NCBI GenBank assembly: GCA_032622095.1
Contig: CP136065.1
Span: 148,929,577 to 148,993,576 of the forward strand
Length of the DNA: 64,000 nt
Source of the DNA: Siphonodentalium dalli
Taxonomy: Eukaryota > Mollusca > Scaphopoda > Gadilida > Siphonodentaliidae
Direction of reading: 5' to 3'
The position numbers and the translations under genes are program-made. This document shows positions 19,301 through 22,300 of this stretch, piece after piece. The notes beneath the pieces are model-generated. The model was not told the DNA's origin. It was given only the letters and a program-made list of their open reading frames with translations, and did no database searches. Every line of letters starts with the position of its first letter. The stretch's first letter is position 1.

Positions 19301-22300
19301 TATTAATTTCACCAATTTTCTAACTGACTAAATTTGCACAAAATAGTGATTACCATTTATCTATGTAAAGTAAATTTATTTTTAGAACTCAATGGAAATT
19401 TGTGATTTGATTCAAGCTGCTCCATTTCTGAATATTATTCCAAGGCCTTTTGTTCCTGAGCAAAGTAAGGCCACTGGGAGCCGGGATTGTATACTAGTTA
19501 AAGCTTTTGCAGTTATAGCTACCTATAATCGTTGCTGTATAGTGGCTTCCATTTATACCATATATATATATAAAAGTATGTCATATAATTGGTACTCAAC
19601 CAACCTTTTACCACATGCAGCAGGTTTTTGTCCAGTCATCACAGGTTGGATTAAGACATAGAGGATCTTACAATTCGTTGGACGTGAAACTAACATTGGC
19701 TTCTTTTGGGCCTGCGATGACGTTTCACTCATCAATGAAAAACATAGAGAAATAGATCAATTTTTTTCTTATAATATATTAATTATTGATAGCTCTCCAA
19801 TAACAATATTTACATGTTGAAACCATTGTTATGTAAACCAAGCTGTCACAGTGATTTGTCAACAAACATTGCTAATAGCAATAATAGCATAATAATAATA
19901 AGTTAAAATATTATAGAATAATTACACCTACTTTTTGTTTTTCAAATTTTTTTTTTTTGTGAAATACAAACTAGATAGCCAAAAATAAAGTTTCTTTGGC
20001 ATAATTATACGCAATCAACGTCGTTTTTGATGCACCTTTGGGCGTGTAGAAGTGTCAGATGCCAAACAACATACAGTAATGCCCTAAATAATCGACTTCT
20101 TAACCACAGCAGAATTATGGGTAATTTTTCAGGATTTAGTCGAAAATATGGCTTGTTGCCATTCATCGGAAAGCTTTCCAATGAATATTTAGGGCATTAC
20201 TGTACTTGGTATAATTAAATTATACAGTATGTTGTTCAGCATCTGACACTTCTATCAGCCTTGAAATTCATCAAAAACTTGTTAATTCGTGAAATTATAC
20301 AGAATGTTGTTTCTATACGCCTGGAGGTGCATTGGAAACGACGATGATTGCATATCTAAATAAGATTTTCGGAATATTTTTCAATGTTTTTACCTTTTGT
20401 GTCTTTATTAGACTAATTGAACTTTGATTATTAATGCTACTGTAACAGTAATGTTTGCACAACAAAGGTTCTGATATGTGAAATCTCGTTAATGGAGAGT
20501 TATTAATAATGAAAATTGATATATTTTTACATGCGCTTCATAATGACAGTTGTTTTACAGACTTAATTGATGTTATTTCGCATGAACCCACTTCATAGAC
20601 GTGAGTCTATTTAAATGCAAGTTTCTCACCATAATCTGCTACTCGGCTCACTCTCAGGTGGTGGTTCTATCTGGTGGTAAAATAAACAAAGATGTTGTGA
20701 ATGTGCAGTCATATTTCAATCTTTTGAAGTATATTCCTCTACCAATCATAATTGATCATAGTCTAATCAAAGACTAATTGCAACATGGCCATTTCGATAA
20801 GAAGTGGGAATTTATTATGTTTTTTTATAAATTAAATAAATTTTAGTCCTAAAATTTGCCAACTGATGGAACATTTGGTCGTTGCCTTTCACTTTCAGTT
20901 GTACACATTTTAAACCTGACACAATTTATTGTAGAACTTGGAAGAAATATGTGATCTGAAGCAAGCAGCTCCATTCCAGAATATAATCCCAAAGCCTTTC
21001 ATTTCTACAGAAAGTAAGATTATATATAACAGGTTTAATGTCTTAACAATATCTTTAACCCTTTCAGTGCCAAGTCCGATATTTGTATCAACCGAAATTT
21101 CCTTGATCATTTTTCAAATTTATTGATTATAATAATGTGATACATTGATGGAAAGAGCTCTTAGAGCTCTTTCCAACAATGTATCACATTATTATAATCA
21201 ATAAATTTGAAAAATGATCAAGGTAATATGGGTTGATACAAAAATCGGACTTGGCACTGAAATGGTAATTCATCTAGCGCCAATTTGTCTCACGGATCTA
21301 GAGATGGTATGTTTGTCAGTGTAATTAGTTCATTGGTTCAGTGGACTGGTCCATGTCAGCAGGACGATTCTGGTCATTTTTAACCCTTTCATGACGGGAG
21401 GTATATATTGTTAGGGCGATGATTTTCTTCTATATGCGAGGCTCCCTATGGGAGACTCACATATATATTAAAGAGAATGCATTGGCACATGGTTTTCGCA
21501 AATTTTCAGGAAGCTCCAGTCATGTAAGGGTTAAGTCGGTTTTCCAGCTAAGCCTACAATCAATAGGACTCGGAGATCTTTGGTTTGCTTATTAACGATC
21601 CAATTGTTTATCAAAATATAATTATCGATTCCATCAATTGGAAATTATAATGACTTTATGGCTCGAATTTGCATTTTACAGTCAGGTGAACATCTATAAC
21701 TAAATGGATTCCAGTGAAATTTATGATATTTTATGTGTTTTTGAACAGTAGAATATTTCTTAACACTAATCTAACTTAGAATCCTGTTTAATCCTGATGA
21801 GTATCACACAAACTCAAAACCGGTTTTCGGACCTAGCACACTCATTACCTTATTACTTCAAATATATTCTTTTTGGTAGGAAAAATGTTTATTTACCAGG
21901 AAGTGTCATTTGAAAAGGCATGCAAATTTGCCAATGATGTCTTCTCCCAAGATATAAACCAATGTATCTGCTACTTAAGTGTCCAAGATTCTTCATTCAT
22001 AAAATCTGTTGGACATTGTACCCATACCATAATATGGTACACATAGTGTCGACGTCTGTATTGACCACTCGCCGTTCGTCCATCTGTCTGTCTGTCTGTC
22101 AATAGCGATAACTCAAACATTTTCTATCTGATCGGAACCAAATGTTCATGCGAGTTTCTCAGCCCAATATACAGATTCAGTTCGAATATGGGTTTAATCC
22201 AATTTTTTTTATGGAGTTTTATACCTACCGATGTCATAGTGACACTACTAGTGCAAAATTTGCACTGGGCACCATAAATTCCAATAATTTGAGAATTTGT

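What the first reader, a model, noticed from the sequence alone, without database searches (positions are those of the whole stretch)
19386..21013. Mutually exclusive exon pair in CYFIP
Two exons, 19386-19464 and 20935-21013, both align to the same CYFIP segment (human about residues 1015-1040) with 17 of 26 residues identical. Each is 79 nt, enters in phase 0 and leaves in phase 1, and has its own AG acceptor and GTAAG donor. Using both or neither shifts the frame, so only one can be used per functional mRNA. The segment lies shortly after the Rac1 D-site loop, so the swap could tune Rac1 or partner binding. The differing residues are clustered: S/L-M/E near the start, I/K, L/Q and the tail PEQ/STE. 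I do not know of a described exon choice at this place in CYFIP.
Basis: partly seen in the sequence, partly recalled or inferred. Interest (0 to 1): 0.85.

Follow-up and report, generated by a model that had tools for sequence, protein, structure and literature searches.

The report
Swappable exon pair in CYFIP copy
An unidentified animal carries two CYFIP genes (a control subunit of the actin-building WAVE complex), and the faster-changing one holds two versions of one small exon, of which a working message can probably use only one, so the cell may swap a 26-residue piece of the protein.

Summary
Exon A (19386-19464) and exon B (20935-21013) are both 79 nt, phase 0 in and 1 out, with AG/GT splice sites, and encode alternative versions of human CYFIP1 residues 1015-1040 (17 of 26 aa, 57 of 79 nt identical). 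A alone or B alone keeps the frame; both or neither meets a stop upstream of later junctions. This is far beyond chance.

New facts: the genome has two CYFIP genes on one contig. The window gene (g1) is the faster-changing copy; in the other (g2) I found only one copy of this exon. A and B share four residues against g2 and human, so the exon most likely duplicated inside g1 after the gene duplication. It is old (dS above 1). Constraint is clear for the pair and for B, marginal for A alone (simulated P about 0.045).

Most likely this is an ordinary tandem-duplicated, mutually exclusive exon pair, in a gene where I found no described one. Actual use of both exons is untested: no RNA. The Rac1 D-site idea has no direct support; the mollusc guess is not supported. 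g1 also differs at WAVE-sequestering positions (Q701L, Y704G, W845E) that are kept or conservative in g2, hinting at an altered regulatory paralogue.

The parts
17964..18094 (+). CYFIP exon upstream of the pair (human 972-1014), leaves in phase 0; carries part of the Rac1 D site
19386..19464 (+). alternative exon A, 79 nt, phase 0 in, phase 1 out
20935..21013 (+). alternative exon B, 79 nt, phase 0 in, phase 1 out; nearer to the single exon of the paralogue
28141..28268 (+). next CYFIP exon, entered in phase 1 (start 28141 scores much better than 28177)
19465..20934 (+). 1470-nt intron between A and B, GT-AG; long for a simple steric block on A-B joining; holds an inverted-repeat element 20023-20278
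21058..21266 (+). element of two 104-nt arms, 94% complementary, starting 45 nt after the end of exon B (MITE-like)
20898..21050 (+). weak candidate stem flanking exon B (20898-20918 with 21030-21050); shuffle P 0.03 / 0.08 / 0.58 for 60 / 100 / 200 nt flanks, the lowest of 12 tests, not convincing
4204..33539 (+). the part of CYFIP gene g1 inside the window: 14 modelled exon blocks 4204-4300, 5223-5299, 7721-7829, 8119-8238, 11574-11773, 13124-13211, 14361-14504, 15905-15995, 17964-18094, 20935-21013 (or 19386-19464), 28141/28177-28268, 30765-31003, 32603-32750, 33384-33539
5223..5299 (+). exon with Q701L and Y704G (human numbering)
11574..11773 (+). exon with W845E (human numbering)

Best explanation
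The window gene is a divergent second CYFIP (WAVE-complex subunit) in which the exon for human residues 1015-1040 was tandemly duplicated, most likely after the gene itself duplicated. Both copies were kept as alternative exons. Each productive mRNA carries A or B; joining both or skipping both shifts the frame and gives an early stop followed by further exon junctions, so such mRNAs would be removed by nonsense-mediated decay or be non-functional. The choice swaps a 26-residue segment in the C-terminal part of CYFIP. Shown: anatomy, frame logic, homology, relation to the paralogue, constraint on the pair. Inferred: that both exons are used, that use is regulated, NMD, and any effect on binding.
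For: Same length, phase and splice pattern, and strong homology. Frame logic. g1 gives a 1,249-aa model aligned to human residues 5-1252, and 16 consecutive blocks (human 412-1040) have the same lengths as in g2, so g1 looks like a real gene. dN 0.23 and dS 1.17 between A and B; random substitution from B gives an open exon with at most 9 aa changes in 0.3% of 50,000 runs. B's own branch P 0.006-0.027. All four splice sites score within the range of this family's other introns. Of the exon blocks of both genes (29 and 28; one 8-nt block left out), searched against both gene regions at E up to 0.01, only this one has an intact open extra copy; two partial pieces lie in g2, one with an internal stop. 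In the D. melanogaster X scan, neighbouring non-exclusive exons with these features occur in only 6 of 1,705 genes (PMC3228551 section 13).
Against: No RNA evidence. Exon A alone is only marginally constrained (P 0.045); by my hand count's codon list its 11 unique differences are 8 replacement and 3 silent, close to the neutral site ratio (61.7 to 16.3). A departs from residues shared by B, g2 and human at E1017 (M) and Q1029 (L). Splice sites of both exons are on the weak side: donors beat 15% (A) and 24% (B), acceptors 33% (A) and 11% (B), of 54 others. No mechanism for exclusivity identified. In the fly X scan only 26 of 65 such internal predictions were already annotated. No other species could be checked.
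Confidence: 0.74

Rival explanations
1. Only exon B is used; exon A is an old duplicate that is no longer spliced and is slowly decaying, or the reverse.
For: A is the more changed copy: 11 A-unique against 6 B-unique sites with g2 as outgroup, plus 5 sites where all differ; A-branch constraint marginal (P 0.045), and its 11 unique differences are 8 replacement to 3 silent (hand count); A lost two residues shared by human, g2 and B.
Against: A keeps an open frame and both splice sites although dS to B is above 1; its acceptor scores better than B's (7.83 against 5.54 bits), though its donor scores worse (5.18 against 6.67); 11 against 6 is too few to show a rate difference (my judgement, no test run).
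Confidence: 0.17
2. The pair is mainly a dosage switch: inclusion of both or neither is common and destroys the mRNA, tuning the amount of g1; the residue difference matters little.
For: Both faulty forms give early stops with later exon junctions. g1 seems to share one NCKAP1 locus and one ABI locus with g2, as far as the searches show, so dosage could matter.
Against: A dosage switch does not need a second open, homologous exon; the coding constraint on the pair would be unexplained.
Confidence: 0.07
3. Assembly artefact or allelic copy placed in tandem.
For: None found.
Against: A and B are only 72% identical, the homology ends near the splice sites, and in the genome search A matches only itself and B only itself and its g2 counterpart.
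Confidence: 0.01

Closest known systems
Tandem-duplicated mutually exclusive exons (fly Mhc, Dscam, MRP, 14-3-3zeta, slo, as listed in PMC6071210 section 3.1)
   Same: Adjacent internal homologous exons of equal length with the same phases and splice types
   Different: In a CYFIP paralogue; only two exons; here a length of 79 nt makes the choice exclusive by frame; use and regulation not demonstrated; no docking/selector pair identified
Human CYFIP1 (PDB 3p8c chain A) and CYFIP2
   Same: Same protein family; 705 of 1,246 aligned residues (g1) and 795 of 1,244 (g2) identical to the recalled human CYFIP1 sequence
   Different: The three CYFIP2 isoforms described in PMC11632847 (passages; the third is a computed one) differ by 558-582, 70-95 and the first 50 residues, not by a swap at 1015-1040
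Duplicated alternative exon of oyster alternative oxidase (PMC5589949, search listing and abstract start only)
   Same: Invertebrate gene with a duplicated exon giving two mRNAs
   Different: Unrelated gene; there the two mRNAs are reported

Membership tests
Mutually exclusive exons of the tandem-duplicate kind (criteria of PMC3228551) | similar length | tested here: met
   79 and 79 nt
Mutually exclusive exons of the tandem-duplicate kind (criteria of PMC3228551) | compatible splice sites and same reading frame | tested here: met
   AG/GT, phases 0 and 1 for both
Mutually exclusive exons of the tandem-duplicate kind (criteria of PMC3228551) | encoded segments homologous | tested here: met
   17 of 26 aa; tblastn E about 1e-8
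Mutually exclusive exons of the tandem-duplicate kind (criteria of PMC3228551) | neighbouring internal exons flanked by further exons | tested here: met
Mutually exclusive exons of the tandem-duplicate kind (criteria of PMC3228551) | each transcript holds exactly one of the two | not testable with these tools
   no RNA data; frame logic only
MXE controlled by competing RNA structure (docking site and selectors) | one docking site complementary to two selectors | tested here: inconclusive
   Best pairing between the left and middle introns, inverted-repeat elements cut out: as stable in 0 of 20 block shuffles and 2 of 100 dinucleotide shuffles. Middle intron with about the first 2 kb of the right intron: 13 of 14 block shuffles as stable or more. 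Left with right: only 1 shuffle run before time ended, 0 of 1. Uncorrected for several tests; no covariation possible with one genome
MXE enforced by U2/U12 incompatibility | one exon edge with U12-type sites | tested here: not met
   Donors are GTAAG; exact GTATCCTT occurs on the + strand only at 532
MXE enforced by steric block | intron between the two exons too short, or its branch point too near the donor, for A-B joining | tested here: inconclusive
   The intron is 1,470 nt, against a simple block; a distant branch point near the donor, as reported for OGDH (PMC7969005, abstract start), was not tested
CYFIP family | FragX_IP profile and collinearity with human CYFIP1 | tested here: met
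   (g2 pieces)

The most novel reading that the evidence does not exclude
This animal runs one NAP1 and one Abi with three CYFIP proteins: a conserved one (g2) and two splice forms (A, B) of a fast-changing paralogue whose WAVE-sequestering surface is altered (Q701L, Y704G, W845E), so that it assembles WAVE complexes that are partly released from self-inhibition, with the A/B swap setting where or with which partner they work.
Probability: 0.15. Interest if true: 0.75.

Novelty: new member of a known kind. Interest (0 to 1): 0.48.

Why it matters
If both exons are used, splicing becomes a way to alter CYFIP outside its mapped Rac1 sites, in an animal that also has a second, conserved CYFIP as a built-in control. 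A 26-residue natural swap points to a surface of the C-terminal part to which the passages I saw assign no function. The altered WAVE-sequestering residues of the same gene add a testable idea about how self-inhibition of the complex can evolve after gene duplication.

Tried and rejected
Tuning of the Rac1 D site: not supported; the mapped surface is residues 961-978 and the mutated patches in the PMC5614565 passages do not fall in 1015-1040. Both g1 and g2 lack the conserved P963 (Q and L) but keep R964, Y967 and G971.

Exon A or B as a transposable element: rejected; A matches only itself and B only itself and its g2 counterpart. Retrocopies that would record a spliced form: none seen; the FragX_IP search gives 26 matches, all at these two intron-bearing loci (only the best candidates are scored there).

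RNA pairing: a stem around B and left-middle intron pairing are weak, uncorrected for the several tests made, and cannot be checked by covariation.

Source organism: no match to PF14830, PF00379 or PF16915; the tool says this does not show absence. A search for papers with '9 chromosomal pseudomolecules' found 26 papers and listed 25; none of the abstract starts shown gives a span near 2.23 Gb. Left open.

Structure prediction was not tried, because its rule asks for proteins that the DNA gives letter for letter and a spliced protein is not such. I had no collection of other animal genomes; the viral-contig scans and the prokaryote genome scan were not used, as relatives were not expected there.

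One search's ORF comparison of the two gene regions was swamped by repeats and its output was cut; the chain was misled by repeats in the middle and was replaced by the spliced alignment. Block 8 of the g1 model (8 nt), the start of the first block and the start 28177 are probably artefacts of that method, and the splice matrices contain these edges. g1's start and stop codons were not checked. In one search the second A row repeats the first: A with the five ambiguous sites given to B was not simulated.

Full report
Observation. Exon A and exon B are in the sequence as described, with the stated coordinates, lengths, phases and splice dinucleotides. They match each other at 57 of 79 nt and 17 of 26 aa. 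Among 127,844 windows of both strands, B scores 79 (itself), 57 (A) and then at most 41, and 2,000 shuffles of A reach at most 39, so this is not chance. The aligned human segment is CYFIP1 1015-1040, counted on chain 3p8c_A.

Frame logic. With A or with B the junction from exon 17964-18094 to exon 28141-28268 is open; with A+B a stop comes after five full codons of B; with neither, a stop comes in the next exon. Further junctions follow at 28268, 31003 and 32750, so both faulty forms are predicted NMD targets (inference from the general NMD rule).

Gene context. The genome (2.23 Gb, 9 contigs) shows two CYFIP loci, both on contig C5: the window gene g1 and g2 about 56 Mb away on the other strand. 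My spliced alignment to a recalled human CYFIP1 gives g1 1,249 aa (705 of 1,246 aligned residues identical to human) and g2 1,245 aa (795 of 1,244); 16 consecutive blocks for human 412-1040 have the same lengths in both. Outside this exon, g1 and g2 agree at 67.2% of 1,214 columns. g1 is the faster copy: in 159 columns only g2 equals human, in 72 only g1 does. NCKAP1 and ABI profiles each ring at one locus (17 matches and 1 match; a missing match does not show absence).

Origin of the pair. g2 has the exon [26 protein letters not shown], also 79 nt with phases 0 and 1; searching the g2 region with exons A and B finds no second copy of it, only matches of E 0.25 or worse. A and B share N1015, I1019, Q1024 and F1036 where g2 and human have S, V, H and H. 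The simplest history is duplication inside g1 after the gene duplication. Against it: A shares R1034, V1037 and E1039 with human where B does not, and P1038 with g2; 26 residues cannot settle a tree. nt identities are A-B 57, B-g2 57, A-g2 52 of 79.

Constraint. Nei-Gojobori estimates: A-B dN 0.233, dS 1.167; B-g2 0.190, 1.832; A-g2 0.335, 1.136; the dS values rest on about 16 sites. Simulated random substitution gives an open exon with no more aa changes than seen in 0.3% (B to A), 1.2% (g2 to A) and 0.07% (g2 to B) of runs. On single branches from a parsimony ancestor: A 16 substitutions (the five ambiguous sites given to A), 8 aa changes, P 0.045; B 6 or 11 substitutions, P 0.027 or 0.006. 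By hand count's codon list the 11 A-unique differences are 8 replacement and 3 silent, near the neutral ratio. So B is constrained and A probably, not certainly, is. Splice sites scored with a matrix from this family's own introns: donors A 5.18 and B 6.67 (higher than 15% and 24% of 54), acceptors A 7.83 and B 5.54 (higher than 33% and 11% of 54); all look usable but weak to middling, as is common for regulated exons (general knowledge).

Control for the claim that the pair is special. The exon blocks of both genes (57, less one of 8 nt) were searched against both gene regions at E up to 0.01. Matches to modelled exons of the other gene aside, the call lists five hits: this pair, g2's exon against A, one poor match of g2 exon 1 to g1 with a stop, and two partial copies inside g2 (of exon 2, 10 aa; of the last exon, with a stop) (splice sites of these pieces were not examined). 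The last-exon piece shows what a broken fragment looks like.

Mechanism of choice. Not found. The A-B intron is 1,470 nt, so a simple steric block is unlikely, though a distant branch point was not tested; the donors are not U12-type. Pairing tests are weak or negative. The introns before A, between A and B and after B hold inverted-repeat elements, the closest starting 45 nt after exon B with 104-nt arms; it may affect B's recognition, but nothing tests this. Exclusion by frame is the only part shown.

Function. The D site is residues 961-978 (PMC9481577 passages), 37 residues before the swapped segment begins. The differing positions are 1016, 1017, 1023, 1029, 1034, 1037 and 1038-1040. I could not place them on partner contacts.

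A side result may matter more. The CYFIP1 mutant L697D/Y704D/L841A/F844A/W845A (WCA*) makes the WAVE complex constitutively active, and Q701R restored lamellipodia to an A-site mutant (PMC7348743 passages). g1 has Q701L, Y704G and W845E; g2 has Q, F and W. Of 15 positions named in the passages for WCA binding, the tyrosine lock or activating variants (86-89, 456, 640, 641, 686, 697, 700, 701, 704, 841, 844, 845), g1 departs from human at 5 (88, 686, 701, 704, 845) and g2 at 3 (88, 686, 704) (which also prints a neighbour, 457: L in g1, M in g2). Most of the named surface is thus kept in g1 as well. This was noticed after the fact, in a gene that is only 57% identical to human, so it is a lead.

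Novelty. Searches for CYFIP or Sra1 with mutually exclusive exons, splicing or tandem exon duplication showed no such event in the listings. In the two glioma papers whose passages I read, the terms were unrelated: PMC7774734 lists a CYFIP2 event as exon skipping, and PMC9399734 names mutually exclusive exons only as an event type. CYFIP is not named in the main text of PMC9741552, PMC3228551 or PMC9013439 (term searches). Supplementary tables and most subscription journals were not searchable. I file it as a new member of a known kind.

Verdict. Real, old, and probably a working exon choice (0.74), in a second CYFIP of an unidentified animal; the functional meaning is open.

Noticed in passing
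window 5223-5299 and 11574-11773: The window CYFIP has Q701L, Y704G and W845E at positions linked to WAVE WCA sequestration or activation; the paralogue keeps Q and W and has F at 704.
   Followed up: partly
L001-L006, L012-L014 (G000 C5:205185001-205275000, minus strand): A second, more conserved CYFIP gene, with a 21.5-kb intron before its single 79-nt exon; the stretch just before that exon is an array of units of about 38 nt (read by eye).
   Followed up: yes
g2 joined coordinates 87381-87452 and 19002-19031: Short partial copies of g2's last exon (one internal stop) and of its second exon, each just downstream of the exon.
   Followed up: no
window 21058-21266, 18110-18347, 20023-20278, 18422-18983: Several inverted-repeat elements, some with TTAACCCTTTC-like ends, in the introns around the pair.
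   Followed up: no
window 55901-56820: Repetitive open frames on both strands made of short degenerate units (GVEVARWASKLPD-like), probably a minisatellite rather than a gene.
   Followed up: no
G000 C7:207224522-207224638 and 207224720-207224794: The last part of the NCKAP1 profile matches twice within about 300 bases, perhaps a partial duplicate of its last exon.
   Followed up: no
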